Shown here: in pieces, positions 1 through 18,726 of the stretch
Numbering within the stretch: the stretch's first letter is position 1
Layout: each line of letters starts with the position of its first letter
Assembly (NCBI RefSeq): GCF_006715305.1
Contig: NZ_VFMY01000001.1
Location: 1,922,001-1,986,000 of the forward strand
Source: Arthrobacter sp. SLBN-100
GTDB lineage: Bacteria > Actinomycetota > Actinomycetes > Actinomycetales > Micrococcaceae
Length of the DNA stretch: 64,000 bases
Direction: 5' to 3'
Program-made: the position numbers and the translations under genes
Notes under the pieces: generated by a model
The model's input: the letters and a program-made list of their open reading frames with translations, nothing else
Told to the model about the DNA's origin: nothing
The model's database searches: none

Positions 1-1852
1 GGTTATCGGCAGTGTTCAGCAACCACCCGCCAAAGCGCGTGCCGTTGGATGCAATCACCGGATTGCTGAACGTGTTGCCCTGTTGCTTCAGGATGCCGAT
101 TCCCCACGGACTGGTCACCAGGACCTCGGCCCGCCCGTCGCCGTCGAAGTCAGCCACCGGTCCAATGAGGTTGTCTTCAGTGTTCAGCAACCACCCGCCA
201 AAGCGGGTGCCGTTGGACGCAATCACCGGATTGCTGAAGGTGCTGCCGTGTTGCTTCAGGATGCCGATCCCCCACGGACTGGTCACCAGGACCTCAGCCC
301 GCCCGTCGCCGTCGAAGTCTCCCGCCCGGGCACTCACGCGTTTCATGGCGGTGAGCAGGTGTTTGGCGTCAGGGCGGCGGCCGATGCGTTGCGTGACCGG
401 ACGGGAAGGGGCGGCCTGTTGCGGAGTTCCAACCATCCTCAGCAAGGACCGTGCCCGTGCCGGAGTCAGGCGCAGCGGACCCCGGCCGGTGGCGATGCCC
501 TGCACAGCGGCCAGGGCACCAAGCACGATGGGAGATGCGCTGGAGGTTCCGGAGAATCCCGCGGTGTACCGGCGCTTCGGATCGCCTCCCTGAAGATCTC
601 CGTAGCCGGCCGAAACCACTTCACGGCCCCAGCCCTGGGCATCAACCCGGCTACCGTAGTTGGAGTAGTCCAGCCGCGACCGGTCCGGCCCCCAGGCGCT
701 CCCGTTGAAGCCAGTGGGAGGTGCGCCGGCCCCGACCATCACGGCGCCGCACTGCGGGTTCGCGGTGTTGAACGGGTTGCGCCAGGTGGACGGGAACCCG
801 CTCTGCGGTGTGTTGTAGACGGCGTCATCCAGGTTTTGAAACCCGTTGCCGGCTGCCTCAATGACGATGATGCCCCGGTTGCTGGCTGCACGGATGGCGG
901 CAAACAGGTCCGGCCACCATTCCAGGGCGATCAGTCCCACATCCGAACCCGGATTGGTGTGGTTGGGTCCGCCCAGCTGGCCTTCGAGGAGCAGGAAGTC
1001 CCCGGGCCGCAGCTCCTCTGCAGCTTCGGTAATCGCCGTGGCTGCAGCCTGGCTGGTCCAGGACGACGCCGCCAGCCAGGCATCTGCCGAAATACCCGTG
1101 ATTCCCTTGGCGTCCCGGTCTCCGCCGATGATGCCAAAGACGGCGGTGCCGTGATCGTTGGAGGCGTTGTTTGTTCCGCTGACAACGCCCCCGTTGTTGA
1201 GGAGCAGATCCTCATGGTCGAGCAGCCAGCCATGCTCGCAATCCACGATCCGCAGCCGGGCGCCACGTCCCCCTGCTATGGTCCATGCAAAGCGTGCGTC
1301 CACTCCGGCCGGCGCCGGATCCAGGTAGCCCTGGCGGGGAGTGAAGTCCGGGGTGGTTGCTGCCGGTTCTTCCGTCCTGGAAACCATCGTATTCAGCGGA
1401 GCGGACGTGGCCTGGATGGTGGGCAGCAGGATGGCTGGCCGCACGTATGCTCCTGCCACGCCGTCGCTGCCCCGGAGTTCCTCCGCGATGGATTCCAGCT
1501 CTCCGGATGGGGCTTCGACGCGGAAGAAGGTGTGCAGTTCCTCCTCGTTCCCGGTCCCGGATGTTCCGGGGCTGCCGCCGGCGTTGCCCTCCGGGCTGTC
1601 CTCGGCTGGCCCGGAGGGAGCCCGGCCACTGTCAGCGAAAGCCTGGGGGAAGAGCGGGGCCAGAGCCGCACCATGCGCCCGGAGCACATCCGACAACGCC
1701 CCCGCCACGGAAGAGAGTGCGGGGCCCGACACATCCCGTGACTCGGGAGCAGCCTGGGCGAGCCGGCGCGCGTTCTCCGGTTCCAGCACGACAATCAGTT
1801 CCGGTTCGGAGCGGGGAAGCTCCCTTTGGTCTTCGTTGAGGGGTGTGCTCAC
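1..1852 (-). CDS. S8 subtilisin-like peptidase with FG-GAP repeats, 3' end outside window
   Basis: Reading leftward from a GTG at 1852 preceded by GGGAG, the frame stays open to the window edge (more than 617 residues). The catalytic triad of family S8 is visible: Asp about 204 (RIVDCEHGW), His about 234 (NDHGTAVFG) and Ser about 437 (GTSSASP), with the oxyanion Asn in EAAGNG near 336. The C-terminal part carries at least two near-identical 56-residue FG-GAP-type repeats (DFDGDGRAEVLVTS), a calcium-binding beta-propeller blade motif. No signal peptide or membrane segment is seen at the N-terminus, unusual for an FG-GAP subtilisin. A long acidic linker lies at residues 75-105. It belongs to the SARP-box hydrolase island. 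It is called partial only because it leaves the window. Confidence 0.9.
   Translation of the reverse strand, partial: MSTPLNEDQRELPRSEPELIVVLEPENARRLAQAAPESRDVSGPALSSVAGALSDVLRAHGAALAPLFPQAFADSGRAPSGPAEDSPEGNAGGSPGTSGTGNEEELHTFFRVEAPSGELESIAEELRGSDGVAGAYVRPAILLPTIQATSAPLNTMVSRTEEPAATTPDFTPRQGYLDPAPAGVDARFAWTIAGGRGARLRIVDCEHGWLLDHEDLLLNNGGVVSGTNNASNDHGTAVFGIIGGDRDAKGITGISADAWLAASSWTSQAAATAITEAAEELRPGDFLLLEGQLGGPNHTNPGSDVGLIALEWWPDLFAAIRAASNRGIIVIEAAGNGFQNLDDAVYNTPQSGFPSTWRNPFNTANPQCGAVMVGAGAPPTGFNGSAWGPDRSRLDYSNYGSRVDAQGWGREVVSAGYGDLQGGDPKRRYTAGFSGTSSASPIVLGALAAVQGIATGRGPLRLTPARARSLLRMVGTPQQAAPSRPVTQRIGRRPDAKHLLTAMKRVSARAGDFDGDGRAEVLVTSPWGIGILKQHGSTFSNPVIASNGTRFGGWLLNTEDNLIGPVADFDGDGRAEVLVTSPWGIGILKQQGNTFSNPVIASNGTRFGGWLLNTADN
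10..320 (-). repeat. 168-bp tandem repeat encoding FG-GAP blades
   Basis: Two adjacent copies with a 168-bp period (56 codons) are nearly identical at the DNA level, from the CAGTGTTCAGCAACC boundary at 10 and again at 178. They encode consecutive FG-GAP blades of the S8 peptidase. The near-identity suggests recent duplication or gene conversion. The array probably continues left of the window. Confidence 0.85.
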
Positions 1853-1913
1853 AGCGTTTTCTCCCGTCCGTTCGGCTATGCCAACTGCTACGGCACCAGA
1901 GTGCACAGGAGCG

Positions 1914-1931
1914 CGTTACCGCGCCGTTACG
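1914..1931 (-). promoter_or_regulatory. SARP-type direct repeat before the S8 peptidase
   Basis: On the minus strand the heptamers TAACGGC and TAACGCG are separated by 4 bp, giving an 11-bp period. This matches the known geometry of SARP operators and lies 62 bp upstream of the S8 start codon. It is like the sites at 3344, 3394, 5968, 6019 and 14726. Confidence 0.65.
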
Positions 1932-2013
1932 GGGAAACCCGCCGTGGAAAGCCCGACGGCGGCCGTGCGGCACACAGCCGCGCGCACCCGCCCGGGGCGC
2001 GGGCCGCCGTCGT

Positions 2014-2059
2014 GCCTTCCTGCGTTCCTGCCTTCCTGCGTTCCTGCCTTCCTGACTTC
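2014..2059. repeat. 16-bp minisatellite, about 2.9 copies
   Basis: The unit GCCTTCCTGCGTTCCT is repeated almost three times in the intergenic space between the small motif protein and the S8 peptidase. No coding role is seen. It could vary in copy number and alter promoter spacing. Confidence 0.8.
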
Positions 2060-2073
2060 CCGGACAGGCCTGC

Positions 2074-2454
2074 TCAGATGCCCGAAAGGAGTTTCACTAT
2101 GGGTTGTCCCAACGGGCCCAGCCATGTGATCAGGCTTTGGATGGGTCCGGCGAGCCCGGCAAGGGCACCCGCCGCACTTGCGATTTCCGTTAGTTTCCTC
2201 AGGGGGCCTGCCACCTTGTCCGGCTCGGGATGGGCGCGGCTGATTTCCTGGTCAATCTCCTTCAGGTGCCCTGACATTGCCGCGAGCTGGCTGCCGGAAA
2301 CGTTCGATGCGGCAACGCCTCGTTCCAGTTCCTGCACCGCTGCACGCAGGGCGCCAGCCTGGACCATCCCGCTGTGCTGACCCCCGCGGATGTATTGGTT
2401 TCCTTCGACATTGTTGACCACGCCGCCGGTTTGATTGTTGATGTTGAATCCCAC
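2074..2454 (-). CDS. Small protein with N-terminal NQ/G-rich motif and hydrophobic tail
   Basis: A 126-residue protein with three parts. Residues 6-21 form a motif NQTGGVVNNVEGNQY, matched at 9 of 16 positions by residues 135-150 of the neighbouring FHA protein. A central helical region (about 35-90) follows. The last 35 residues are hydrophobic and glycine-rich and could insert into a membrane. No enzyme motif is seen. The repeated G/N/Q motif resembles short amyloid-type signalling motifs that let partner proteins co-assemble. This is an inference from pattern, not homology. The gene follows the FHA gene by 29 bp and is probably in its operon. Confidence 0.75.
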   Translation of the reverse strand: MGFNINNQTGGVVNNVEGNQYIRGGQHSGMVQAGALRAAVQELERGVAASNVSGSQLAAMSGHLKEIDQEISRAHPEPDKVAGPLRKLTEIASAAGALAGLAGPIQSLITWLGPLGQPIVKLLSGI

Positions 2455-2483
2455 CCTGATCGTTCTCCTGACTCGTTACCCGC

Positions 2484-3269
2484 TTACGGGCCTCCCGGAC
2501 GCGGCAACGGGAATTCCCGGTCCACTCTCTTGCGCCGGGACGTGGCCACCACATGAAGGACAATGCCGATGATCATGAAGAGTTGGCCCCCGCCTACGAT
2601 GTAAATACCGATGATGTAGCCGCGAAATGCGGCAGGAATAGCCCCGCCGGTGTAAGTGGGCATACCCTCCATAAACTGGAGGAAATTGGCTCCGACAATC
2701 ACGAGTCCGGCGATGGTCAGGCCTAAACCAACCCAGATCAGCCAGCGGGCCCAGGTTTTTGTGGCGGCAATGTCCCGGAGGAAGCTTTCGCGTTCCTGCC
2801 GGACATGGCTGACGTAGGCGGTGTATTGATTGCCTGCCACGTTGCTGATGTTTCCCGCATGCTGGTTCTCTATGTCGTATCGCCCCTGGATGTGCTCGGC
2901 GCGCGGGAGCGGCCGGTCTGCGCGCTGAAGCGGAAGGACGGCTGTGGGCTGCGCTTTTTCGGGCACACCCTGATACTCGAACCGGGCACCGCCAAAGGCA
3001 ACGACGTCACCCGAGTGCAGGACCACCTGTCCGGATGCGGGCCGTCCGTTCACCGTTGTTCCGGCACTGGATCCAAGATCCTGGACGGACACGCGCCCAC
3101 TGCTGTCCACGGTTAGTGACGCGTGCACCCTGCTCACGGTTGGTTCCGAAAGCACGAGGTCATTGGTATGGCTCCGGCCCACAGTCTTAAAACCGTGCGT
3201 CAACTCGTAGTCGCCGCCCAGGCTGCCGCGCGGCCCGAGGGCGATGAGTCGGGAAACGATGGCGTCCAC
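2484..3269 (-). CDS. FHA-domain protein with two C-terminal membrane helices
   Basis: 261 residues. The N-terminal 100 residues are a forkhead-associated domain, which reads phosphothreonine: GRS at 31-33, SRVHA at 46-50 and the TTVNG turn at 71-75 are visible. A linker holds the motif ENQHAGNISNVAGNQY (135-150), shared with the small protein encoded next. Two transmembrane helices lie near 176-198 and 219-242, followed by a basic tail. The protein could tether a phospho-dependent signal to the membrane and recruit the small protein through the shared motif (inference). It diverges from the SARP gene across a region holding two SARP-type repeats, one facing each way. Confidence 0.88.
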   Translation of the reverse strand: MDAIVSRLIALGPRGSLGGDYELTHGFKTVGRSHTNDLVLSEPTVSRVHASLTVDSSGRVSVQDLGSSAGTTVNGRPASGQVVLHSGDVVAFGGARFEYQGVPEKAQPTAVLPLQRADRPLPRAEHIQGRYDIENQHAGNISNVAGNQYTAYVSHVRQERESFLRDIAATKTWARWLIWVGLGLTIAGLVIVGANFLQFMEGMPTYTGGAIPAAFRGYIIGIYIVGGGQLFMIIGIVLHVVATSRRKRVDREFPLPRPGGP

Positions 3270-3343
3270 TGTGTGGGTTTCCTTTGGGACTGATAACTCT
3301 TCCCTGTGTTTGTCCGCAGGTGGGCATCAGTTTAGGGATGCGG

Positions 3344-3361
3344 CGTTACAGCGGCGTGACC
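3344..3361 (-). promoter_or_regulatory. SARP-type direct repeat facing the FHA gene
   Basis: On the minus strand TCACGCC, 4 bp, TAACGCC: two heptamers at an 11-bp period, 75 bp upstream of the FHA start. It lies in the divergent region with the opposing site at 3394. Confidence 0.65.
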
Positions 3362-3393
3362 GGACCTTTCCGGCTGGTTGCCTTGGTCAACGG

Positions 3394-3411
3394 TAACGCG
3401 GCAATAACGCG
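3394..3411 (+). promoter_or_regulatory. SARP-type direct repeat facing the SARP gene
   Basis: A perfect pair TAACGCG-GCAA-TAACGCG with 11-bp period, 66 bp upstream of the SARP start codon. Its position suggests autoregulation. Confidence 0.7.
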
Positions 3412-3476
3412 GTGGGATGTGAACTCCCACTTACAGCCTCCGATCTCAGGGGTGAGTAAGGGGAGAGGACCATTCC

Positions 3477-4256
3477 ATGAATGTGGGAAGAAACGGTGAG
3501 CCTGGCGGCGGGGCCGCCCTTGACCTTCGGCTCCTGGGCGACTTCCGGCTGGGGCATGGCGAATCGACAGTGGAACTGGCCCCTCGTGCCGAGCATCTGC
3601 TGGCCTTCCTGGCGTTGCGCAACAATATGACCCGGACAGCAGTCGCCGCCCAGTTGTGGCCGGATCTTGACGAAGCCCAGGCACGGGGGTGCCTCCGCTC
3701 AACGTTGTGGAGGCTGCCGAGGCCGGACGGGCTAACGCTGGTGGTCGCGTCCGGTGACAGGCTCTACCTGACCACCTTCGTGCAGGTGGATGTGACCCGG
3801 TTACGCGAAGGGCTGGATCAGTGGTTGCCGGGTGACTCCCCGCCGGTGCAAATCGGCCCGCTCAGCGGAGATCTGTTGCCGGGCTGGTACGACGACTGGC
3901 TGGTGATCGACCGCGAGCGCCAGCGCCAGGTCCGGCTCCATGCCCTGGAGCGAATGTCCGCCTGGTACGTGGGCGCAGAGAGGTTTGACAGGGCGATCGA
4001 GGCAGCCTTGCAGGCGATTGCCGGAGATCCGCTGCGGGAGAGCGCGCACCGTTGCCTCATCCAGGCCCATCTGGCCGAAGGCAATATCAGCGAGGCCCGC
4101 CGGCAGGTGGATATCTACAGGAGCCTCCTGGCCGAGGCCGGCATCCCCGCGCAGCTCTCGGCGCGCATGCACGAACTCATGCGGCCGGCCCGCGTCATGC
4201 ACACGTCTGCAGTGGCCCCGCTGGTGAGAGGCCCCAAGTGTGAAGTCGCATTTTGA
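3477..4256 (+). CDS. SARP-family transcriptional activator
   Basis: 259 residues. The N-terminal part (about 15-105) fits an OmpR-type winged helix, with typical LLGDFRL and FLALRN segments. The rest (about 110-250) is a bacterial transcriptional activation domain (BTAD) with TPR-like helices. There is no NB-ARC or other extension, so this is a small, stand-alone SARP. Such proteins activate transcription by binding heptamer direct repeats at 11-bp spacing next to the -35 region. Repeats of this kind occur before this gene and before several others in 1-15 kb, so it is the likely regulator of the hydrolase island. The start ATG follows GGGGAGAGG. The end overlaps the flavoprotein gene by 17 bp. 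Confidence 0.9.
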   Translation: MNVGRNGEPGGGAALDLRLLGDFRLGHGESTVELAPRAEHLLAFLALRNNMTRTAVAAQLWPDLDEAQARGCLRSTLWRLPRPDGLTLVVASGDRLYLTTFVQVDVTRLREGLDQWLPGDSPPVQIGPLSGDLLPGWYDDWLVIDRERQRQVRLHALERMSAWYVGAERFDRAIEAALQAIAGDPLRESAHRCLIQAHLAEGNISEARRQVDIYRSLLAEAGIPAQLSARMHELMRPARVMHTSAVAPLVRGPKCEVAF

Positions 4257-5178: not shown

Positions 5179-5216
5179 GGAATCTGTTCTGCTCTCACCC
5201 ACCGGCCAGCGGCAGT

Positions 5217-5408
5217 TCAGAGATCAAATTCATTACCCTTTACACCGGCAAGAAAGGCTCGCCACTCCTCGGCGGAGAATACAATCCGGGCTGCAGGATC
5301 CGCGGAATTCCGTACATACACTTTCCCCGTTGGCGGTGCCAGCGCCACCTCAACGCAGCAACTGTTGGCGCAATGGGAAGAGCGCTCGAAGGTCAGTTCA
5401 CCATCCAC
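5217..5408 (-). CDS. DUF397 protein
   Basis: From a GTG at 5408, preceded by AGGAG, the product is 63 residues. It has the family pattern RSS..C..CCVEVA, VYVRNSADP and EEWRAFLAGVKGNEFDL. DUF397 proteins in actinobacteria commonly pair with XRE-type regulators in development and toxin-antitoxin-like circuits. No such partner is adjacent here. A TTG at 5456 would add 16 residues but has no good ribosome site. Confidence 0.85.
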   Translation of the reverse strand: MDGELTFERSSHCANSCCVEVALAPPTGKVYVRNSADPAARIVFSAEEWRAFLAGVKGNEFDL

Positions 5409-5522
5409 TTCTACTCCTCTGGTTCGTTGGTGTGGCCCTATGGGTGGCCCGGCCAAGGTTTTTTCCCCGTCCGGGCCCTGGTTGAGCTGCCGCCACCCGC
5501 AGCGGGCACAGCGTTCAGCCGA

Positions 5523-5888: not shown

Positions 5889-5967
5889 GGTTCTCCCCTT
5901 AGCGATTTGTGGTTAGCGATTTTTGGGCGGATCCGGATTGACCCGTTCCTGCATGGTTCCAACCGCT

Positions 5968-5985
5968 CGTCACCGGAGCGTCACG
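5968..5985 (-). promoter_or_regulatory. SARP-type direct repeat facing the cysteine-rich protein
   Basis: CGTCACC-GGAG-CGTCACG on the plus strand, so CGTGACG and GGTGACG on the minus strand, with 11-bp period. It is 80 bp upstream of the 5888 start. Confidence 0.6.
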
Positions 5986-6018
5986 CTGACCGTGCTGGTT
6001 CACAATGCGGTGCTGCGG

Positions 6019-6036
6019 TGACGCCAATGTGACGGG
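6019..6036 (+). promoter_or_regulatory. SARP-type direct repeat facing the M36-M28-S1-CHAT operon
   Basis: TGACGCC-AATG-TGACGGG, 11-bp period, about 107 bp upstream of the M36 peptidase start. Confidence 0.65.
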
Positions 6037-8227: not shown

Positions 8228-8268
8228 CAGGTTCACATGACCTGCAATAACGCCCAACGGGGAGAGCC

Positions 8269-9210
8269 ATGAATGGACAGGTGCCCGCTTCAGGTTGCCG
8301 CGGCCGGGCAGCAGGACGGCCGCGGCCAGTCCTGCTGCCGCGGACAGAGGCCGCCCCGCTCCGCGGCGCCGAAATGGCGACGACGACGGCCCTGGCCGAC
8401 GGCGTCTCGGCAGACACATACCTTGAGGTCCTCAAAGAGCTCACCGCGCACCCCACGCGTCATTCGTTCTCGCCGTCCTACCGCGACGCGGCACAAAGGG
8501 CTGGTGAACGGCTTACTGCGCTCGGCTATGCCACCCGCGAAGAGCCGGTCTCCTTCGGTGGCCGCCAGACCCTCAACGTCATCGCTGAGAAGCCCGGCAC
8601 GGCCGCCGCAGATGAGCGGCGGCTCGTGTACGTCGTCGCGCATCTGGACTCGATCAACGAGGCCGGCGGAACCAATGCACCAGCACCCGGGGCGGATGAC
8701 AACGCCTCGGGTGCGGCCGGAGTCCTGGAAATCGCCCGCCTTTTGGCCGCCACCACCGCGCGGCACGACCTGCGCCTGGTCCTGTTCGGTGGCGAGGAAC
8801 AAGGGCTGCACGGGAGCCGCGTCCACGTTGCGGGCCTGCCTGCAGCCGAAAGGTCGAGGATCAGCATGGCCGTCAACATGGACATGATCAGCCGGCTCAA
8901 CACCGCGGCACCATCTGTGCTGCTTGAGGGCGCGGCAGTTTCCCAACACGTGATCGACGCACTGGCACAGGCCGCCCATGACACGTCCGACCTGGAGGTG
9001 TTCGTCTCGCTTGAGCCCTTCGCCTCTGACCATGTGTCCTTCATTAACGCCGGCCTGCCTGCCGTGCTGACCATCGAAGGCGAGGACCAGTTGAATACCG
9101 ATGAGCACACCCCCAGGGACACCCTCGAAGGACTGGAATTGTCAGTGGCAGCGAGCATCCTCCGGATGAACACCGCTGCCGTGGCGGCCGAGCTTGGCGC
9201 GTCAGTTTGA
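8269..9210 (+). CDS. M28 family zinc aminopeptidase
   Basis: 313 residues; ATG preceded by GGGGAG. The dinuclear-zinc motifs of M28 are present: HLDS (about 125), GADDNASG (about 142), GGEEQGLHGS (about 174), VNMDMI (about 203) and SDHVSF (about 254). The family removes N-terminal amino acids from peptides, so it could finish digestion begun by the endopeptidases around it. The first 30 residues are Arg/Pro-rich with no hydrophobic signal segment. It is the second gene of the five-hydrolase run. Confidence 0.92.
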   Translation: MNGQVPASGCRGRAAGRPRPVLLPRTEAAPLRGAEMATTTALADGVSADTYLEVLKELTAHPTRHSFSPSYRDAAQRAGERLTALGYATREEPVSFGGRQTLNVIAEKPGTAAADERRLVYVVAHLDSINEAGGTNAPAPGADDNASGAAGVLEIARLLAATTARHDLRLVLFGGEEQGLHGSRVHVAGLPAAERSRISMAVNMDMISRLNTAAPSVLLEGAAVSQHVIDALAQAAHDTSDLEVFVSLEPFASDHVSFINAGLPAVLTIEGEDQLNTDEHTPRDTLEGLELSVAASILRMNTAAVAAELGASV

Positions 9211-9245
9211 AGGCTCCGTCCTGACATCGATCGAAAGGCAAGCAA

Positions 9246-11297
9246 GTGGAGGATCTCATCGGCCGCCTTCGGGCCGCCAACGCCCGGATCGAAAGCCGGG
9301 ATGGCCAGCTGGGCGAGGAAATGCTCGAACGCCGTGCGGCCACACCGTCCGTTCCAGGAGGGGCCGTGGGTGACTTTGAATTGGCGCAGCCAGGCCGTGG
9401 CCCACAACTGGAAATTGGCGGACAGACGGTGGACCGGTTTGAGTTCGCGCAGGAGACCATCGTGTTGAGGACCGGGCGGCCGGTGCTGGCCGTAGTGGAT
9501 GATGAGGCGCAACTCGTGTTCTCCGACCCCGAAAGCAGCGTTTGGGAATCACGGCTGCGGGACGCATCAGGGCACCTGCAGGCTGCTGCCCGTGCCGTGG
9601 GCCGGATCGAGGTTGAAGGGCACAGCCTGGCCTGGCTCGGCACTGGCTGGCTGGTGCAGCCCGATGTGGTGGTGACGAACCGCCACGTGGCGGCGGAGTT
9701 CGGGCGCCACGACGGCACCTCTTTTGTGTTCAAGCAAGGCATTGCCGGCACCCGGATGGAGGCCTCGATCGACTTCCTGGAAGAAATCGGCAGCACCAGG
9801 GAGCGCACTTTCCGGCTGAACCGCATCCTGCATATCGAGGATTCGGCTGGCCCCGATCTGGCGTTCATCCGCCTCACCCCGACCAGGGGGAGCTCGCTGG
9901 CAAGGCCGATCGGGCTGTCCAGCCATGAAGATGAGAACGAAATGGTCGCTGTGATCGGGTACCCGGCCCGCGACAGTCGAATCCCGGACCAGCAACTGAT
10001 GGACGAAATCTTCGGGAACGTCTACAACAAGAAGCGGCTGGCGCCCGGACAGTTGATCGGGTCCGATCCGACGTCGGTCCGCCACGACTGTTCGACCCTT
10101 GGCGGCAACTCCGGGTCAGTAGTGCTGTCGCTCTCAACTGGCAAGGCGGTGGGCCTGCACTTCGCCGGCCGGTTCCTCCAGGGCAATTTCGCGGTACCGG
10201 GCACCGTTGTGGCGGAGCGCCTGGACAAGGTCCTCAGTGGGCGGCGCCTGCCGGTCCGGGTTGATCAGCAGGTTCCGGACAGTCCGGCGTCCACAGCTCA
10301 CCTGGCGTCGCCGGACCCCCGTACGGAGACCAAATTCTCGTTCGTGGTTCCACTGCGGGTGACAGTAGAGGCCGGGAACCCTTATCCCGATGGCGAAGGC
10401 CAACGCGGCCGGGCGGCCGGCGCGTCTTCACAAACCAGCGACGGGGACGAGGACGTATTCACCGAGGCAGTTGCCGCGGACTACAACGACCGGCTGGGCT
10501 ACGAGGAGGCCTTCCTGGGCACTCCCGTGCCCCTGCCGTCGTTGACCACGCGCCGGGAGGATGCCCTGGGCTTCACCGTGAACGGAAAAACCGAGGACGT
10601 GCTGCGGTACGAACACTTCGCCGTGATGATGAGCAGGAGCCGGCGGCTGTGCTTGTTCAGTGCCGTCAACATTGACGGGCTGCAGTCCATATCGCTGCCC
10701 CGCACGGGCTGGCGCACGGACCCGCGCATTCCACTCGAAGCACAGATCCACAAGGAGTGCTACGGGGCCGAGCCTAAGTTTTCGCGCGGCCATATGACAC
10801 GGCGGGAAGACCCGGTATGGGGTCCCCAGGCGTCCGCAGCGAAAGCAAACGCGGACTCGATGCACGTCACCAATGCCGTGCCCCAGATGCAGCCGTTCAA
10901 CGGCGGCGTCTGGCTCGAGCTCGAAAATTACGCCCTGCAGAACGCACGCAAAGATGACATGAGGATTTCCGTTTTCACCGGTCCGTTCCTGGCAGAGGAG
11001 GACCCCGTCAGGTTCGGCGTACGGATCCCCACCGAGTTCTGGAAGGTCATAGCGTTCATCCATGACGGGACGGGCCAACTCTGCGCCACCGGCTACACCA
11101 TGTCCCAGCAGGATTTCCTGCGGGAAGAGGAATTTGTCTTCGGCAAGCATAAGACTGCGCAACAGTCTGTTGCTTCCATTGAGCAGCGCACGGGCGTCTC
11201 GTTCGGGGCCCTCACCGCACTGGACCCCTTCGAGGACACCGAAGGCCTGTTCACCGAACTGACGGATCTCCGGCAGATCCGGTTCGTGGGACGCTAG
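9246..11297 (+). CDS. Trypsin-like (S1) peptidase fused to DNA/RNA non-specific endonuclease
   Basis: 683 residues from a GTG after GAAAGG. An N-terminal region of about 110 residues has no recognised domain. A trypsin-like domain follows with His about 147 (TNRHVAAE), Asp about 204 (DLAFIRL) and Ser about 289 (GGNSGS). The C-terminal ~270 residues match the NUC1/EndA endonuclease family: RGHM with catalytic His near 516, the metal-binding Asn region TNAVPQ near 541, and FNGGVWLELE. Both active sites appear intact, so one chain could cut protein and nucleic acid. No signal peptide is seen. This fusion is the strongest hint that the island attacks the cell's own contents. Confidence 0.9.
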   Translation: MEDLIGRLRAANARIESRDGQLGEEMLERRAATPSVPGGAVGDFELAQPGRGPQLEIGGQTVDRFEFAQETIVLRTGRPVLAVVDDEAQLVFSDPESSVWESRLRDASGHLQAAARAVGRIEVEGHSLAWLGTGWLVQPDVVVTNRHVAAEFGRHDGTSFVFKQGIAGTRMEASIDFLEEIGSTRERTFRLNRILHIEDSAGPDLAFIRLTPTRGSSLARPIGLSSHEDENEMVAVIGYPARDSRIPDQQLMDEIFGNVYNKKRLAPGQLIGSDPTSVRHDCSTLGGNSGSVVLSLSTGKAVGLHFAGRFLQGNFAVPGTVVAERLDKVLSGRRLPVRVDQQVPDSPASTAHLASPDPRTETKFSFVVPLRVTVEAGNPYPDGEGQRGRAAGASSQTSDGDEDVFTEAVAADYNDRLGYEEAFLGTPVPLPSLTTRREDALGFTVNGKTEDVLRYEHFAVMMSRSRRLCLFSAVNIDGLQSISLPRTGWRTDPRIPLEAQIHKECYGAEPKFSRGHMTRREDPVWGPQASAAKANADSMHVTNAVPQMQPFNGGVWLELENYALQNARKDDMRISVFTGPFLAEEDPVRFGVRIPTEFWKVIAFIHDGTGQLCATGYTMSQQDFLREEEFVFGKHKTAQQSVASIEQRTGVSFGALTALDPFEDTEGLFTELTDLRQIRFVGR

Positions 11298-11344: not shown

Positions 11345-13309
11345 ATGAACCCCCAACTAACTATCGAGCAACTGGCGTGGCTGGCCGCCGAGGACCTCCG
11401 CCAGGACCTTCTCAATATCGCCGCCAGCACGTACCTCCGTGCCACCATCGAGGACGCAGCGAAGGAAGACGCCCTGCTGGCCGCAGCGTTTGCAGAACTC
11501 CAACAAAAGCCCGCCGATGCGGGACTCCTGAAATCGTTCGCAACGGCGCTTGCAGAGGTTTTAAGGAAGGATGCAGGCCTAGCGGAACGCCTCGAAAACT
11601 GGGCCCGGCAGAGTATGCCGCCCCGCTACAGCGGCGACATCGAGGCTGAAGCAGCTCCGGCGGAGGCAACCCCAGACGCCGCGGCCCCGCTGCCGCCGTC
11701 GAACGCGGCGCAAGCCTGGCTCAACGCCGAACTTGAAGACGCGGACGCAGCCCAACCCCTGCTGGTGGGCGAAACGTACACCCTGGCGATCAGCCTCGAC
11801 CAAGCGGCAAAAAACACGGTCATTGCCAGCGGCGCCCCGGTCAACCTCCTGTTTCCCCCAGGAACTGAGGAGCTGACCATCACGGTGCAGCTCGACAGTG
11901 ACCACTTTGAGGTCCGCGAACGGAGCCTCCCCCTGCACTTCCGCCGGAGTGTGGCAGGCGGCAAGGCCGCATTCCACATCGTTCCGCGCACGGCCGGCCG
12001 GCACAACCTGGTGGCCACCGTGCATCACGCCGGGAACTTCCTTCAGCAACTGACAATAACCATTGACGTAGGGGCCGTTGCTGACCGGCCTCTGACGTCG
12101 TCGTCGCAGGGGCGGCCCATGGCGGATGCCGCGTCGCTGCAACCACGCGACATCGGTTTCGCCATCGAACCGGCACCTGGCGGAGGTTACAACTGCACCG
12201 CGTGGGGGGCGACGGCGGCCCGCGTCTACCTGCCTATCGAGGAGCAGGAACTTGCCTCCGCGATAGACCAGGTGCGGCGCGCACTTCTGGACGTCGTCGG
12301 AAAGCAAAAATTCCGTACCCAGCTGGACATTCCACCCGAGGACCGGGATGGCGCCCTGCGCATCCTCGCCAAGGAAGGGTTCCGTCTCTATCAGAAGATC
12401 TTCTACCATCCCGCCGGCGGCGCGGACGCCCGGCGCCTCGGCGATTGGCTGCGCCAACAGACCACCGGCAGGGACGAGGTACTTAAGATCCAGCTTTTAA
12501 CCCGCAACTTTCCAGTGCCCTGGGGACTTCTCTACATCGACGACGAGTGGAAGGCCGGCGGGACGGATTGGCGGCGGTTCCTGGGCATGAGCCACATCAT
12601 TGAGCAGATCCCGCTTCAAACGGCGATGACGACGCTCAGCGGTGTGATCGACAGCGGGCCAACGGGTTTGTCCGTGAGCGTGAACTTCAACGAGAGCATC
12701 GATGAGCAGATGCACGCCGATTTCGTGGCCCGACAGGTGCAGTACTGGGGCGCTGCTGCCGACTTCAGGCCGCCCATCAACCTGGTAAGCCGCACGAAAC
12801 GCGCCGAATTGGTCGGTGCGCTCAAGGACGCAGCTAGCCCCGATCAGATTCTTTACCTGTTCTGCCATGCGGTGGCGGCGGGCCTGACTGGTGATGGCCC
12901 GGACGCCTCATGCCTGGTGCTCTCCGGCGATGAACGCATTACGCTGGGGGACCTGAACCTGGAAGCACCCACCACGGTGCAACTTGCAGGCAGCCCGTTG
13001 GTATTCATCAACGCCTGTGAATCCGCAGAACTCTCACCTCTTTTCTACGACGGGTTCGTGCCCTACTTCATGGCAAAAGGCGCCCGCGGAGTCATCGGAA
13101 CCGAGTGCAAAACGCCGGCCCTGTTCGCGGCCGAGTGGGCCAAATCATTCTTTGACCAGTTCCTGGAAGGCGGCTCCCTGGGCGAGGTTTTCCTCCGGAT
13201 GAGGCGCGAATTCTTCGAGCAGCACGGCAACCCGCTGGGCCTGATCTACGGCATCCACTGCGACGGCGACACGCGGGTCCACCCGGCCATGAGCCGCGCA
13301 GGTCACTGA
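11345..13309 (+). CDS. CHAT-domain cysteine peptidase
   Basis: 654 residues. The C-terminal third is a CHAT (caspase HetF-associated with TPR) domain with His near 507 (FCHAVA) and Cys near 558 (NACES), the expected dyad. The N-terminal 90 residues are helical and could be a small effector-associated or adaptor domain. A linker rich in Ala/Pro and a probable beta-sandwich (about 140-240) follow. CHAT peptidases are separase-like, usually highly specific, and known in bacterial death and antiphage systems (for example gasdermin-cleaving and CRISPR-linked members). Here it sits 47 bp after the peptidase-nuclease gene. Confidence 0.9.
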   Translation: MNPQLTIEQLAWLAAEDLRQDLLNIAASTYLRATIEDAAKEDALLAAAFAELQQKPADAGLLKSFATALAEVLRKDAGLAERLENWARQSMPPRYSGDIEAEAAPAEATPDAAAPLPPSNAAQAWLNAELEDADAAQPLLVGETYTLAISLDQAAKNTVIASGAPVNLLFPPGTEELTITVQLDSDHFEVRERSLPLHFRRSVAGGKAAFHIVPRTAGRHNLVATVHHAGNFLQQLTITIDVGAVADRPLTSSSQGRPMADAASLQPRDIGFAIEPAPGGGYNCTAWGATAARVYLPIEEQELASAIDQVRRALLDVVGKQKFRTQLDIPPEDRDGALRILAKEGFRLYQKIFYHPAGGADARRLGDWLRQQTTGRDEVLKIQLLTRNFPVPWGLLYIDDEWKAGGTDWRRFLGMSHIIEQIPLQTAMTTLSGVIDSGPTGLSVSVNFNESIDEQMHADFVARQVQYWGAAADFRPPINLVSRTKRAELVGALKDAASPDQILYLFCHAVAAGLTGDGPDASCLVLSGDERITLGDLNLEAPTTVQLAGSPLVFINACESAELSPLFYDGFVPYFMAKGARGVIGTECKTPALFAAEWAKSFFDQFLEGGSLGEVFLRMRREFFEQHGNPLGLIYGIHCDGDTRVHPAMSRAGH

Positions 13310-13346
13310 ATCCGCATCCTCTACCAACGCCCAGGAAGGACACCCC

Positions 13347-14684
13347 ATGGTAATCAGGCACATCCCGGACCACCCGGACCTGACGTATCACCTCATCCGC
13401 TACGACAAACACGGCACTGAAATCCCGGAAGACGCAAACACGTGGGGCAGCGAAGCCGTACGCGCTGACCTGGAGTCCCCTGAAACTGGCATCACTGACG
13501 TTTTCCTCCTCAGCCACGGTTGGAACTCCGATGCCGAGGGCGCCATGGCCCAGTACGACGCCTGGGTGTCCATGACCAGGGACACCAGGCCGGCCGACAT
13601 TGGACGCCCCTTCCGTCCCCTCATCGTTGGATTGCACTGGCCGAGCAAGGCGTGGGGCAATGACACGATAGTAGCGACCGGACGTGACGGACTGCTGGGA
13701 GCCGAAGCGCCGCCGTCGGACGCTATCACCGTGGACGATGCAGTGGACAGGTACGCCGACCTCCTGTCCGACACGCCGGACGCCCGGGCCGCCCTCCGCA
13801 CCATCTTTGAAGCCGCCGCCGATTCCGGCGCGGATGAACACCTGACCGCTCAGCTGCAGACCGCCTACCAGACACTGTCCCGTGAACTGCAACTCGGTGA
13901 ACTCCCTGATGATGACCACGCGCCCGCCGAGGCCTGGGACGCTGAGAGTGTGTTCCAGCAGGCGCTTGAAGACACCAGCGCCGCCTCGGGCCTCCTCGGC
14001 GGCGGCGCCTCATCAAGCCGGCTAAAGGACGCAGTTCTCGCGCCGTTCCGTCAGCTGTCATTCTGGATGATGAAGGCCCGTGCCCTGGCGTTCGGTGAGA
14101 CCGGCGCCGCGCACCTGCTTCGTCAACTTCAGGACGCAGCGGACCAGGACGTGCGCTTCCACCTGATGGGACACAGTTTCGGTTGCATCGTGGTCAGCGC
14201 AGCGGTGGCAGGCGCGGAGGGGGCGCCTGAAGTCCGCCCGGTGGATTCACTGTTCCTGGTGCAGGGTGCCCTGTCCCTTTGGGCCTACGCCCGGGCCGTG
14301 CCGGACGAGGTTGAGCCGGGCCACTTCCACCGTATTTTGCGGGAAGAGCTGGTACGCGGCCCCATTGTGACCACCCGGTCCACCTTCGACTACGCGGTGG
14401 GGCGCTTCTATCCGCTCGGCGCCGGAATTGCCGGGCAGGTCCTCCTCGCGGATCTTCCCCGCTATGGCGGCCTGGGCGCCTTCGGTATTCAGGGTGTACA
14501 GGACGCGAAAAACCATGAAATAGGCGATGAGAACACCGACTACCAATTACATGCCGGCGGGGTCTACAACATCGATGCGTCCACGGTGATCAACAGGGTC
14601 AGTGGTCCAGGCGGCGCACACAGCGACATTTCCCACCCTGCCGTTGCGGCCCTGGCATGGCAGGCTGCACTAGCCAGCGCCTGA
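13347..14684 (+). CDS. Alpha/beta hydrolase (lipase/esterase-like)
   Basis: 445 residues; ATG preceded by AAGGA. The oxyanion segment LLSHGWNSD is near 51-59. The nucleophile elbow GHSFGC has Ser near 276, and a candidate catalytic His lies in SDISHPAV near the C-terminus. A long insertion (about 125-250) separates the first strands from the elbow and may be a lid. No signal peptide is visible. A phospholipase or ester hydrolase role is plausible but the substrate is unknown. It is last in the run starting at 6143. Confidence 0.85.
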   Translation: MVIRHIPDHPDLTYHLIRYDKHGTEIPEDANTWGSEAVRADLESPETGITDVFLLSHGWNSDAEGAMAQYDAWVSMTRDTRPADIGRPFRPLIVGLHWPSKAWGNDTIVATGRDGLLGAEAPPSDAITVDDAVDRYADLLSDTPDARAALRTIFEAAADSGADEHLTAQLQTAYQTLSRELQLGELPDDDHAPAEAWDAESVFQQALEDTSAASGLLGGGASSSRLKDAVLAPFRQLSFWMMKARALAFGETGAAHLLRQLQDAADQDVRFHLMGHSFGCIVVSAAVAGAEGAPEVRPVDSLFLVQGALSLWAYARAVPDEVEPGHFHRILREELVRGPIVTTRSTFDYAVGRFYPLGAGIAGQVLLADLPRYGGLGAFGIQGVQDAKNHEIGDENTDYQLHAGGVYNIDASTVINRVSGPGGAHSDISHPAVAALAWQAALASA

Positions 14685-14725
14685 CTTCCGGGCATCCTTA
14701 CTGAAAGCCGCCTCCACGGCGGCCG

Positions 14726-14754
14726 TAACGCCGGAGTAACGGCCCAATAACGCC
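14726..14754 (+). promoter_or_regulatory. Triple SARP-type direct repeat before the M12-caspase operon
   Basis: Three heptamers at exact 11-bp period: TAACGCC (14726), TAACGGC (14737), TAACGCC (14748), with 4-bp spacers. This is the longest and cleanest of the island's repeats and lies 68 bp upstream of the M12 start. Confidence 0.75.
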
Positions 14755-14821
14755 AAACGGCGTACGAATGGGGTGACTCGTCACCCCGGGGCTGGCAACG
14801 GCAGGCACAAAGGAGAAAGAG

Positions 14822-15511
14822 ATGGCCGAGAAGAACCAAAGTCACTACTGCTCAATTCCGTCAGCACCGGCACACTCCAGCAAAGAAAAAGCGGCGGTGC
14901 TGAATGAAGCAAAGTGGCCGGAAGGCGCCACCATCAAGGTAGGTTTCCTGGGCGGAGATGTTGACCTTCAACGGCGCGTGCAGGACGTTGCCCAAGAGTG
15001 GACCGGACCCCAGATGGCACGGCTGCAGCTGAACTTCGTGGATGGCTCCACAGCGGATATACGGATCGCCTTCGAACAGGGCAACGGCTCATGGTCCTAT
15101 CTCGGCACCGAAGCGCAGCAAATTTCCGCCGCAGACCCCACCATGAATTACGGCTGGCTGAGGCCGGACTCAACAGACGACGAACTCCGACGTGTTGTTT
15201 TGCACGAGTTCGGCCATGCACTCGGCTTGATCCACGAGCATCAAAATCCGGACAAACCGATCGCCTGGAACAAAGCAGCCGTCATTGCCGACCTCTCAAA
15301 ACCTCCGAACTCCTGGACCCCGGAGGTGATCGAGAACAACATTTTCAAGACGTACGACAAGTCCGACGTCGACACTACCGCCACCGACCCTGCGTCGATC
15401 ATGATGTACCCGATTCCCGCCTCGTGGACCACGGACGGGTTCTCGGCCGGGCTCAACAAGGACCTATCCACTACGGACAAGGATTTCGTCCGAACCGCGT
15501 ACCCGTGGTGA
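14822..15511 (+). CDS. Astacin-like M12 zinc metallopeptidase
   Basis: 229 residues; ATG preceded by AAAGGAGAAAG. The long zinc signature HEFGHALGLIHEHQNP begins near 127. A Met-turn SIMMYP follows about 65 residues later, as in astacin/metzincin peptidases. The chain is short, almost only the catalytic domain, and lacks a recognisable signal peptide or propeptide. It is the first gene of a group with the caspase-like gene (21-bp gap) behind a triple SARP-type repeat. Confidence 0.92.
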   Translation: MAEKNQSHYCSIPSAPAHSSKEKAAVLNEAKWPEGATIKVGFLGGDVDLQRRVQDVAQEWTGPQMARLQLNFVDGSTADIRIAFEQGNGSWSYLGTEAQQISAADPTMNYGWLRPDSTDDELRRVVLHEFGHALGLIHEHQNPDKPIAWNKAAVIADLSKPPNSWTPEVIENNIFKTYDKSDVDTTATDPASIMMYPIPASWTTDGFSAGLNKDLSTTDKDFVRTAYPW

Positions 15512-15532
15512 TGTGAAGGCGGGAGCTCAATC

Positions 15533-18076
15533 ATGGCCGACTACGCTGTCGTCGTTGGCGTGGCACAGTACCCGGAACTTTCTGCCGCGGGCATTGCCTC
15601 CGACCTGGATGGACCCAACAATGACGCCACAGCGGTAGTGGAGTGGCTGCTGGACCCGGGTGGCGGCGGGCTGCCACCCGGCAATGTGAAGGTCATCAGG
15701 TCCTGTGACTACGTCCCGCCGGACCCGTACGATCCGCAACCGGCCGAAGCCGAAGTGGAACGTGCGCTGAGGTGGGTCGAGGCGCAAACCCGCAATGCAT
15801 CCGGACACAGGCTTTACCTTTACTTTTCCGGGCATGGATTTTCCCCCGTCGCACAAGAGGGAGCGCTCTTCACCGCCGAGGCCACCCAGGTGAGCATGTC
15901 CTACGTCTACGCCCACGGCTGGCTGAAATGGTTCCGCACCGCTCAACGTTTCGAAGAATTTGTCCTGTGGATGGACTGCTGCATGAACTACCAGCAGTCC
16001 ATCCCTGTCCGCCCGGTTAACATGCGTCCACAAATCGGGACTGGAACCCCCGGCCCGGAATTCGTGGCTACGGCGGCCGAAACCAAGAGCGCCATCGAAG
16101 GCAAGATGACCGACGGCCTGGTGCACGGCGTGTTCACCTGGACCCTGCTTCAGGGCTTACGCGGAGGCGCCGCAGATTATCGGGGGCGGGTCACGGCTGA
16201 AGGCCTGAAGAATTTCCTGCACACCGTGATGCCGGAGTTTCTCCCTGAACCTGTCAAGGCAGCCAACTCCGTTGATTTGCAGGCATCCGTGCGTACGGGT
16301 GGGGACATCCTCTTCGCGCGTTTCCCGGCTCGGCCAAAGTATCCCGTGCGCCTCACCTTTCCTGCAGCCGCCGCCGGGGAGCTCCTGAAGATCTGGGCGG
16401 GAAGCCCCCATAAACCTGTTGTCGAGGCAATCCTGACGGGCGCGGAATGGACCGGTGAATTGGTTCGAGGCCTCTACGTAGCGGAGGTCGCTGCGGCAGG
16501 ACTGCGTCACGGCTTCCAGGTCACAGGGACCGGCAGCGTGACTTGTGCTGTCAGTGATCGAGGCAACGCCGTCATCGAACCACCCGCCGAGGGGCAGTTC
16601 ACACTGGACGTCGTGGCACAGAATGCCGCCGCCACCATCACGGTCATGGACCACAACTTCACAAAGATTTACACGTCCACCGGGGAGCTGCACGAGCGCG
16701 ACGTCCCCGGTGTCTACAAAGTGCGAACCCAGATCGGACGGGAGATGGGGACCATAAAGGAGGAAATCCTCCTCCTCGACTGGGATACGGCGCGGGACAG
16801 CATGGCGGCACGGGCGCTGCCATCCCCCGCCCCGATCCCGGGAAGCGCCTTCACGCATGAGTCCCACGTCCGGCAGTTCGCCGAGGCCGCTGCAGGCAGG
16901 GGGATGTTCGCGGACAGGAAAGCCGGCAACGCTCAAATCTCGGTGCTCTCGCGGTATTGGACAGAGGAACCGCTGACCAGTGTCCCGGCCCCTTCGTTGC
17001 ATCCGATGCAGGGGCTCGATATCTTCCGGTTTGATGGACAGCTTCTGGCGCACATGGCTGCGGAATGCACCTTTGACGACAAATCCCCGGTGGACCGCGT
17101 GGCCGTGTGGGAACAGAACGTCGAGCCTGGCGTTTACTTCCTGCGGATCACGCCCCCATCCGGCGCGCAACTGGAAGCAAGCATCGTTGCCGCTCCCAGC
17201 TGGCTGACACAGCTGGCCATCAAGCGTCCGACGCCGATTGCCGGGCAGTCGAAAAGCAGCAGGCTGATGCCAACAGGCGATGCAGCCATCTTCATGCGTG
17301 ACATCTGGAAACCGCCGGGGACGTCCGGGCAGGAAGCCGTCCGGGAGTTGTACGCGCTGGCCTCTACAGATGACCGGGAGCTCCCGCAGGCCGGGCAGGA
17401 CGCTGTGATCGAGGCCGCGAGGATTGCCTTCACGCAAGGGCGCAACCTGCTCGGCGGTGCACGGGGCACCAAACTGCAAAAACTGCTGCTGGAAGAGTTT
17501 GATGACCCTATTGCCGGAATCATCGGCGGACACCTGCTGCTCATGGCCATGGACACTGCCACCGAACCAGACCCGGCACTTGAGGAGGTCTTCGCTGCCG
17601 CCGTAGCAAGGCTGCGGGGGCTGGTCCGGTCCTGGCATCCCGACGTCGAGGCTCTGGCCTTGCGGTCCGCTGATCCCGCTGCACGTCCGGACAAGCCCTT
17701 CACCGCGGCTCCCATGTTCAGCCGCAGCTGGCAGATCATCGTCGAGGCCAGTTACGACAACCCTGATCTCGTTCCCGCCAGCCTTTGGTCGCGGGTTCAC
17801 GCGAACCGGAGCATTGGCCCGTATTTCGCCTGGGCCACCGACGAGGCCAGCCGCTCAGCGCACGCCCAACAACTTGGCCTGTGGAATGCAGCGCACGGAC
17901 CGCGAAGCACGCGATCCAGTGGGCGCCGGCCACCGGCCGCCATGCCGAACCCTGCCGGCACGGCCGCACCCCGCATGCCAGAGGCATTGCGGGAGGACGC
18001 GCGCCGGCTTGGCATACCAGCGGTCGCAGCGGAGAGTATCTGGCGCGGGACGGTCTCAGGCGAACCGGGACAATAG
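15533..18076 (+). CDS. Caspase-family (peptidase C14-like) multidomain protein
   Basis: 847 residues; ATG preceded by GGCGGGAG. The N-terminal ~260 residues form a caspase-like domain: VVVGVAQY first strand, His101 in FSGHG, and the MDCC motif with candidate catalytic Cys150 (Cys149 adjacent). The remaining ~580 residues hold beta-rich segments (about 270-420) and a helical C-terminal half with no recognised family, perhaps sensor or substrate-binding modules. It ends in a Pro/Ala/Arg-rich tail. Bacterial caspase homologues often execute death programmes. Here it is coupled to the M12 peptidase and to an unknown protein starting 5 bp downstream. Confidence 0.9.
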   Translation: MADYAVVVGVAQYPELSAAGIASDLDGPNNDATAVVEWLLDPGGGGLPPGNVKVIRSCDYVPPDPYDPQPAEAEVERALRWVEAQTRNASGHRLYLYFSGHGFSPVAQEGALFTAEATQVSMSYVYAHGWLKWFRTAQRFEEFVLWMDCCMNYQQSIPVRPVNMRPQIGTGTPGPEFVATAAETKSAIEGKMTDGLVHGVFTWTLLQGLRGGAADYRGRVTAEGLKNFLHTVMPEFLPEPVKAANSVDLQASVRTGGDILFARFPARPKYPVRLTFPAAAAGELLKIWAGSPHKPVVEAILTGAEWTGELVRGLYVAEVAAAGLRHGFQVTGTGSVTCAVSDRGNAVIEPPAEGQFTLDVVAQNAAATITVMDHNFTKIYTSTGELHERDVPGVYKVRTQIGREMGTIKEEILLLDWDTARDSMAARALPSPAPIPGSAFTHESHVRQFAEAAAGRGMFADRKAGNAQISVLSRYWTEEPLTSVPAPSLHPMQGLDIFRFDGQLLAHMAAECTFDDKSPVDRVAVWEQNVEPGVYFLRITPPSGAQLEASIVAAPSWLTQLAIKRPTPIAGQSKSSRLMPTGDAAIFMRDIWKPPGTSGQEAVRELYALASTDDRELPQAGQDAVIEAARIAFTQGRNLLGGARGTKLQKLLLEEFDDPIAGIIGGHLLLMAMDTATEPDPALEEVFAAAVARLRGLVRSWHPDVEALALRSADPAARPDKPFTAAPMFSRSWQIIVEASYDNPDLVPASLWSRVHANRSIGPYFAWATDEASRSAHAQQLGLWNAAHGPRSTRSSGRRPPAAMPNPAGTAAPRMPEALREDARRLGIPAVAAESIWRGTVSGEPGQ

Positions 18077-18081
18077 AGCGC

Positions 18082-18726
18082 GTGTACGAGTTTGAGATCA
18101 CCAAGGGCGTGTCAGTCTCGTTTCAGCGTTACCCCTACCCCGGAGCCGGTTCCCTGTCCGCCTTGCCCTCCAGCCATGGCGCCCTGCCGATTCACGTCTC
18201 CGGGCCTGCGCAGCTTGAGGTGCCCTCCCCGCCAAACGAGGCATTCTGGATTGCTCTTCTGGGTAGTTCCAGCGGTGCGGCCTCAGACGTTGCACTGCTG
18301 GCATACGGCCGAAAGGGAACGCCGGTGGATGTCCTCACCGGAATGCCCGCCGCAACACCCACTGGGCGGGTGACTTTGCCCCCGCATCAATTCATTGCAG
18401 GCATTCGCCAGGGAACCGGAACCTGGTGGGCCTTCGCACGTGATCCGTCCGCCCCTGCCCCGGTCACCGCCGCCGTCGATCTCTTTGTCCGGACCTGGTC
18501 CGGCCCGAGTGCGGCCACTGCCCGGCCGGCATCCCCCACTCCCCAGCACATGCCGGGACAAAAATCCCCGGACCATGGACTGGCGCCGCCCTCCGTAGCC
18601 GCTGTTGCTGAAAACCGCACCTTACGGATCGTCTTCACTGACGAAGCCCACTTCAGTTCGATGAGCGGCCGGCAGGTTGCCCCGCTGAGTCATGATCCAG
18701 GCCTTAGGGATAGACGACTCCCCTGA
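18082..18726 (+). CDS. Hypothetical protein coupled to the caspase-like gene
   Basis: A GTG at 18082, 5 bp after the caspase stop, gives 214 residues; the upstream part of the open frame overlaps the caspase gene and is unlikely to be translated. The first ~130 residues look beta-rich (VYEFEITKGV, WWAFARDP). The last third is Pro/Ser/Ala-rich with a final segment RTLRIVFTDEAH. No catalytic motif is seen. Tight coupling suggests it binds or regulates the caspase-like protein (inference). Confidence 0.7.
   Translation: MYEFEITKGVSVSFQRYPYPGAGSLSALPSSHGALPIHVSGPAQLEVPSPPNEAFWIALLGSSSGAASDVALLAYGRKGTPVDVLTGMPAATPTGRVTLPPHQFIAGIRQGTGTWWAFARDPSAPAPVTAAVDLFVRTWSGPSAATARPASPTPQHMPGQKSPDHGLAPPSVAAVAENRTLRIVFTDEAHFSSMSGRQVAPLSHDPGLRDRRLP

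What the first reader, a model, noticed from the sequence alone, without database searches (positions are those of the whole stretch)
1..18726. A multi-protease, nuclease, CHAT and caspase island that looks like a self-digestion system
Within 18.7 kb lie eight hydrolases from different classes: S8, M36, M28, S1+NUC1, CHAT, alpha/beta hydrolase, M12 and caspase-like. All show intact catalytic motifs. They accompany an FHA membrane protein, a small motif protein, a SARP activator and a flavoprotein reductase. No transport, maturation or metabolic genes interrupt them. CHAT, caspase-like and trypsin-like peptidases are known effectors in bacterial conflict and programmed-death systems, but this assembly with metallopeptidases and an aminopeptidase under one SARP is not one I can name. 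A coherent reading is total degradation of cell content on a signal. An alternative is a specialised lytic or developmental programme.
Basis: partly seen in the sequence, partly recalled or inferred. Interest (0 to 1): 0.93.

Follow-up and report, generated by a model that had tools for sequence, protein, structure and literature searches.

The report
Swappable hydrolase island likely for defence
In the chromosome of a soil bacterium likely of the Arthrobacter group, a 20-kilobase island carries eight genes for predicted protein-, nucleic-acid- and ester-cutting enzymes, most of which fall into gene sets that recur in unrelated bacteria, and the island is predicted to work inside the cell as a triggered suicide or anti-virus defence.

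Summary
In detail: eight hydrolase genes of different classes, with intact catalytic motifs, lie side by side. None has an obvious signal peptide.

The island is a mosaic, not one fixed machine. A seven-gene core (SARP, flavoprotein, DUF397, Cys-rich, M36, M28, trypsin-NucA) recurs in two other genomes; four of the seven recur in a third. CHAT-alpha/beta-hydrolase is a separate unit, fused in some metagenome homologues. M12-caspase recurs as neighbours on Sinorhizobium and Cupriavidus replicons; M28 and M36 are fused on a Mesorhizobium plasmid. The first 12 genes keep their order at the same site in one related genome (two of them decayed), where the M12-caspase tail is replaced by M12-like, trypsin and STAND-like genes. 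Four relatives have no island there.

Trypsin-NucA is 'System 3' of Kaur et al. 2020, a published predicted conflict system. Best reading: an expanded, modular version, an intracellular protease/nuclease/lipase effector array predicted to be fired by a proteolytic cascade. Activation, substrates, cell death and phage protection are untested. New variant of a known kind.

The parts
1..1852 (-). S8 subtilase with C-terminal FG-GAP repeats, no obvious signal peptide; runs off the window (whole ORF 919 aa)
   Evidence: PF00082 E 5e-11, FG-GAP E 6e-45 on the whole ORF L093:4148-6907; ortholog 1682 bits in G898
2074..2454 (-). 126-aa small protein with NVEGNQY motif, weakly like DUF5955 (below cut-off)
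   Evidence: 21.6 bits, cut-off 27.1; motif; decayed in G898
2484..3269 (-). FHA domain protein with NVAGNQY motif and hydrophobic (predicted membrane) segments; candidate sensor or adaptor (inferred)
   Evidence: PF00498 E 2e-19; best 19-mer hydropathy 2.19; decayed in G898
3477..4256 (+). SARP-type regulator (BTAD)
   Evidence: PF03704 E 5.5e-9; conserved beside the core in L005, L077, L096
4240..5178 (+). Pyr_redox_2 flavoprotein, thioredoxin-reductase-like (CPLC motif, recalled)
   Evidence: PF07992 E 9e-29; conserved in L005 and L096
5217..5408 (-).
   Evidence: PF04149 E 2e-14; conserved in L005 and L096
5523..5888 (-).
   Evidence: no Pfam match; orthologs in L005 and L096
6143..8227 (+). 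M36 fungalysin with N-terminal propeptide-like region, no obvious signal peptide
   Evidence: PF02128 E 1e-84; NF038112 628 bits from residue 92 of the 740-aa reading, below its cut-off; hydropathy
8374..9210 (+). M28 aminopeptidase, no obvious signal peptide
   Evidence: PF04389 E 3e-36
9246..11297 (+). Trypsin-like peptidase fused to NucA-type (Endonuclease_NS) nuclease
   Evidence: PF13365 E 1e-14, PF01223 E 3e-40; catalytic residues 15 of 15
11345..13309 (+). CHAT protease with N-terminal five-helix bundle and beta domain
13347..14684 (+). Alpha/beta hydrolase, partner of CHAT
14822..15511 (+). M12/M10-like zincin metallopeptidase (HExxHxxGxxH), partner of caspase
   Evidence: PF00413 E 3e-6, PF01400 E 8e-6; 53-58% identical neighbours of caspase
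15533..18076 (+). Caspase-like peptidase with long C-terminal region
   Evidence: PF00656 E 1e-5; PADLOC caspase E 3e-16; long homologues
18082..18726 (+). 214-aa gene following caspase (CT), no family
   Evidence: Homologue in the same place in S. terangae, E 3e-10

Best explanation
This is a chromosomal island of cytoplasm-retained (predicted) hydrolases built from interchangeable gene modules around a trypsin-NucA nuclease core, and it likely works as an inducible conflict system that would kill or shut down the cell, or destroy an invader, by a proteolytic cascade. Shown by sequence: the eight hydrolase genes with intact motifs, the lack of obvious signal peptides, the module units (trypsin-NucA; M36 next to M28; CHAT next to alpha/beta hydrolase; M12 next to caspase), their fusion or adjacency elsewhere, and the tail exchanged at one conserved chromosomal site. 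Inferred: a signal (perhaps through the membrane FHA protein) or SARP induction makes or activates the peptidases; caspase, CHAT and trypsin act as specific initiator proteases that cleave partners in the array; the M36 zymogen and the trypsin-NucA protein are released by that cleavage; nuclease, general peptidases, aminopeptidase and the lipase/esterase-like hydrolase then degrade nucleic acid, protein and possibly membrane ester. Target (self or phage) is untested.
Against: No EAD, STAND, MoxR-vWA or other known sensor/switch domain was found in the window proteins scanned. FHA and its small neighbour are decayed in G898 while the enzymes remain open. Trypsin-NucA has no other island gene near it in 6 of 8 named loci, and the whole island was seen only once. 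Of 14 distant ABH loci read, 6 have an S8 neighbour by eye (L079, L080, L081, L085, L090, L091), but five of one family (L086-L089, L092) showed no conflict-type neighbour. The CHAT genes beside ABH on plasmids are CHAT by annotation only and were not matched by ours. Stand-alone NUC1 proteins of the family also lack obvious signal peptides, so that trait is not diagnostic. Neither ABH nor trypsin-NucA was found in viral contigs. No expression, toxicity or phage data exist here.
Confidence: 0.6

Rival explanations
1. A neighbourhood of several independent defence or conflict modules (a defence island) that merely share an insertion site and do not act as one system.
For: Modules occur separately elsewhere; the tail is exchanged in G898; AbiEi-like genes (below Pfam cut-off) sit on either side of the island or alone at the same site.
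Confidence: 0.45
2. A developmental or stress autolysis programme (SARP-controlled lysis or recycling of cell content) not aimed at phages.
For: SARP-type regulators and broad digestive enzymes such as M28 and M36 fit nutrient recycling (recalled); no phage-linked copies of ABH or trypsin-NucA found.
Against: Rare and patchy (CHAT in 3 of 206 genus genomes, the own one included) at a site without island genes in four relatives, unlike a core developmental programme; neighbours of relatives are often conflict genes.
Confidence: 0.2
3. Secreted or injected digestive enzymes (nutrition or competition) leaving the cell without classical signals.
For: M36, M28 and S8 are usually secreted families (recalled); related M36 proteins in L010 and L085 have signal-like N-termini.
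Against: No obvious signal peptide in any of the hydrolases; no Baseplate_J match in the own genome, with controls ringing in 3 of 14; caspase, CHAT and FHA act in cells in known systems (recalled).
Confidence: 0.1

Closest known systems
NucA-trypsin conflict systems, 'System 3' of Kaur, Burroughs, Iyer and Aravind 2020 (PMC7159879)
   Same: Trypsin-like peptidase fused to a NucA/Endonuclease_NS nuclease, further peptidases incl. S8 nearby, rhizobial plasmid relatives (they report mostly alphaproteobacteria), STAND/EAD neighbours in relatives.
   Different: Here in actinobacteria, with M36, M28, CHAT-ABH and M12-caspase added, a SARP, and no EAD1 or STAND in the window. Section 32 does not mention these additions; figure 7B and source data were not seen.
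EACC1-caspase two-gene systems, 'System 4' of the same paper
   Same: Caspase-superfamily peptidase as constant component with a variable C-terminus.
   Different: No EACC1 membrane gene 5' of the caspase; an M12 peptidase gene takes that place; NCBIfam NF047832 49.5 bits against a cut-off of 140.
TPR-CHAT / Csx29 (Craspase) and separase
   Different: No CRISPR effector seen beside it; N-terminal helix bundle and partner hydrolase instead.
DUF397 recruited beside VMAP ternary conflict systems (Kaur 2020, section 23)
   Same: DUF397 gene without an HTH partner seen next to it, by a predicted conflict system.
   Different: Single copy, no VMAP, MoxR or vWA hit here.

Membership tests
NucA-trypsin conflict system (System 3) | NucA/Endonuclease_NS and trypsin domains fused or in one operon | tested here: met
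   PF01223 and PF13365 in one protein; 47% identical full-length relatives on rhizobial plasmids
NucA-trypsin conflict system (System 3) | Further peptidases coupled (S8 in some cases) | tested here: met
   S8, M36, M28, M12, CHAT and caspase genes; S8-small-trypsin-NucA order on two rhizobial plasmids
NucA-trypsin conflict system (System 3) | EAD1 on a trypsin paralog, or a STAND NTPase (optional: the paper says a subset) | tested here: not met
   No EAD or STAND hit in the window proteins scanned; STAND-like ATPase and trypsins present in G898 at the same site. Optional, so not disqualifying
NucA-trypsin conflict system (System 3) | Protects against invaders by a proteolytic cascade | not testable with these tools
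   Predicted, not shown, in the passages read; no experiment here
EACC1-caspase system (System 4) | 5' gene with a single-TM EACC1 domain | tested here: not met
   Gene 5' of caspase is M12 with no hydrophobic segment (best 19-mer 0.54)
VMAP/MoxR-vWA ternary system | MoxR, vWA and VMAP genes | tested here: not met
   No such Pfam hit among the window-region proteins scanned (10, 9, 6), which reach to 27.5 kb but are not every ORF
CHAT peptidases | CHAT fold with His/Cys dyad | tested here: met
Contractile-injection (eCIS) effectors | Contractile baseplate genes in the genome | tested here: not met
   PF04865 0 matches in the own genome; controls ring in 3 of 14. The same tool missed the window's own caspase with PF00656, so this is weak
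Secreted digestive peptidases | N-terminal signal peptide | tested here: not met
   Hydropathy scan only, for the start codons chosen, no dedicated predictor: best N-terminal 11-mer at most 1.72 in the hydrolases (caspase) against 2.2 and 3.44 in related M36 with signal-like N-termini

The most novel reading that the evidence does not exclude
Bacteria assemble a whole-cell 'digestive apoptosis' array by swapping two-gene protease modules: a separase-like CHAT protease with its own lipase, an M12 protease with its caspase, and an aminopeptidase with its fungalysin zymogen, all plugged into a trypsin-nuclease core at a fixed chromosomal slot and fired as a cascade, so that proteases of several catalytic classes activate one another to dismantle a phage-infected cell.
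Probability: 0.28. Interest if true: 0.88.

Novelty: new variant of a known kind. Interest (0 to 1): 0.62.

Why it matters
If true, it shows that bacterial conflict systems scale up by combining protease units of different catalytic classes, each with its own partner enzyme, and it gives discrete pairs (CHAT-ABH, M12-caspase, M28-M36) that can be tested one at a time for mutual activation. It would also place intracellular M36 and M28 enzymes, normally thought of as secreted digestive proteins, in cell death or immunity. Kaur et al. predicted the NucA-trypsin cascade; no test of it turned up in my paper searches.

Full report
What is there. The window is bases 1922001-1986000 of a 4.6-Mb contig in a two-contig genome. 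Its left end holds, in order: S8 with FG-GAP repeats (minus, running off the window), a 126-aa protein (minus), an FHA membrane protein (minus), a SARP-type regulator (plus), a flavoprotein (plus), DUF397 (minus), a 121-aa Cys-rich protein (minus), and then M36, M28, trypsin-NucA, CHAT, alpha/beta hydrolase (ABH), M12, caspase and a 214-aa gene (CT), all plus. Gaps between the plus-strand genes from M36 to CT are 5 to about 150 bases with the starts chosen. A second SARP-type gene follows S8 outside the window, and a paaABCD-like operon lies left of it (paa names recalled from the sequences). To the right lie an AbiEi-like gene (below cut-off) and DUF2795.

Enzymes look active and intracellular. 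Catalytic residues of trypsin and nuclease are kept in 15 of 15 aligned sequences, the window's included, those of CHAT in at least 90% of 19, ABH Ser277 and His425 in 23 of 23, and caspase His and Cys in both long homologues. A hydropathy scan found no signal-peptide-like stretch in any hydrolase, while two more distant M36 proteins have one (L010, L085). This is a simple scan, and stand-alone NUC1 proteins of the family also lack one. The M36 proteins of the window, L005, L077 and L096 share the same leaderless start.

The island is built of modules. (a) Core: SARP, flavoprotein, DUF397, Cys-rich, M36, M28 and trypsin-NucA recur in Pseudarthrobacter sulfonivorans ALL (L005) and in G898; SARP, M36, M28 and trypsin-NucA in G419. 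M28 and M36 are fused, with a HAD-like stretch, into one 1303-aa protein on Mesorhizobium plasmid pOM4, close to FAD-dependent oxidoreductase genes. (b) CHAT-ABH: adjacent here, in G898, in G837 and in G1111; one protein in P0139, P0142 and P0147 of the 19 aligned CHAT-family members, and in two cut copies, P0144 (ABH start missing) and P0153 (CHAT end missing). On plasmids, ABH homologues stand next to an annotated CHAT gene in Planktothrix, and next to a C25 peptidase with annotated CHAT genes close by in Nostoc and Sinorhizobium terangae; these CHAT genes were not matched by ours. (c) M12-caspase: 7 plasmid records match the caspase; the two that cover 80% or more (Cupriavidus campinensis, S. 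terangae) both have the M12 homologue next to it (match ends 36 and 29 bases apart), and S. terangae also has CT. (d) Trypsin-NucA: 99 plasmid records match, 13 over 80% of the protein; by genus name 61 of the 99 are Rhizobium, Sinorhizobium, Bradyrhizobium, Mesorhizobium or Agrobacterium. The four read lie beside S8, trypsin-like and serine protease genes, or trypsin, M12 and caspase genes (of these only M12 matched the window's).

The whole set is a mosaic. In G898 (contig length equal to that listed for Pseudarthrobacter sp. NS4) the genes from S8 to ABH keep their order at the same site, between the paa genes and a conserved DUF gene; the FHA and small genes are decayed there, and M12-caspase-CT is replaced by an M12-like gene, trypsins and a STAND-like ATPase on the other strand. 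Four relatives with both flanks on one contig, 11.6 to 22.1 kb apart (G057, G021, G037, G040), carry none of the window's island genes there beyond one weak flavoprotein match; the other genomes of the 61 searched were not examined at this site. CHAT is rare: 3 of 206 genus genomes, the own one included. Full-length trypsin-NucA is in 3 of 295 family genomes by query span, the own one included; 53 of 295 match at all at the threshold used. ABH is in 3 of 347 order genomes and 15 of 396 phylum genomes at different thresholds, the own one included. Three contig lengths are shared by the CHAT, ABH and caspase homologue lists and a fourth by ABH and caspase, so the right half also recurs elsewhere; identity of the contigs is inferred from length. 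Trypsin-NucA has no other island gene near it in 6 of 8 named loci, two of them near contig ends.

Link to conflict systems. Kaur et al. 2020 describe NucA plus trypsin, sometimes with S8, as 'System 3', predicted to work by a proteolytic cascade (passages and section 32 read), and DUF397 recruited beside related systems (section 23). Kaur et al. 2021 (passages) name the NucA-trypsin system again. In the loci found here the neighbours include EAD5-trypsin and a STAND-like ATPase with weak Pfam scores (L009), CHAT-SIR2 and nSTAND1 (L104), TIR-NB-ARC about 7 kb from CHAT-ABH (L098) and Trypco2 fused to a CHAT homologue, and genes read by eye as type I restriction-modification about 7 kb from CHAT-ABH (L103). 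Among 14 distant ABH loci an S8 gene is a neighbour by eye in 6, one of which (L090) also has a caspase; five loci of one family (L086-L089, L092) showed no conflict-type neighbour.

Mechanism. Shown: the gene set, its motifs, the modules and their exchange. Inferred: intracellular action, induction by SARP or FHA, activation by mutual cleavage, death or invader destruction. The strongest argument for a single system is the conserved core and the repeated gathering of the same enzyme classes; the strongest argument against is module independence and the decay of the only sensor-like gene in G898. I give about 0.6 to an effector array of the System 3 kind, within which the question of one system or several neighbours stays open (the first rival overlaps with it, so the odds do not add to one).

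Verdict. Real and unusual, partly explained by a published predicted system; new variant of a known kind.

Noticed in passing
L005 1377-3830 (Pseudarthrobacter sulfonivorans ALL): A trypsin-like protease (by eye and a weak match to the window's trypsin) ends in many tandem KF(R/L)DDGG-type repeats and is followed by an ATP-grasp ribosomal peptide maturase (TIGR04187 E 1e-78, below its curated cut-off); it looks like a protease fused to a repeated graspetide-type core, next to the conserved SARP to trypsin-NucA core. One paper search was read as a listing only.
   Followed up: partly
window 2074-3269; L096 around 8600-9500: Small protein and FHA protein share an NVxGNQY motif (2 window hits, about 0.008 expected by a crude estimate); both genes are decayed in G898.
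   Followed up: partly
L093 3250-4038: Second SARP-type regulator just left of the window, downstream of S8.
   Followed up: partly
window 18904-19892; L096 4668-5639; L110 8689-9987: AbiEi-like gene on the right of the island here, on its left in G898, and alone at the same site in G037 (relatives by eye).
   Followed up: no
L119 15433-34856; L120 16222-36131: Two giant adjacent genes (about 7.8 and 12 kb) lie near caspase modules on both Mesorhizobium pOM4 and Sinorhizobium pCB3126_2; their relatedness was not tested.
   Followed up: no
L113 15093-22549: Trypsin-NucA on a Bradyrhizobium plasmid lies near a deazaguanine (dpd/que) cluster and a PLD-like gene.
   Followed up: no
L122 10123-14609 (Paenibacillus pART37): S8, trypsin, S8 and an M12-like gene cluster in a Bacillota plasmid; one S8 and the M12 match those of the window.
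   Followed up: no
window 21881-24475: AMP-binding, carrier and acyltransferase-like domains in one protein, an NRPS-like acyl ligase.
   Followed up: no
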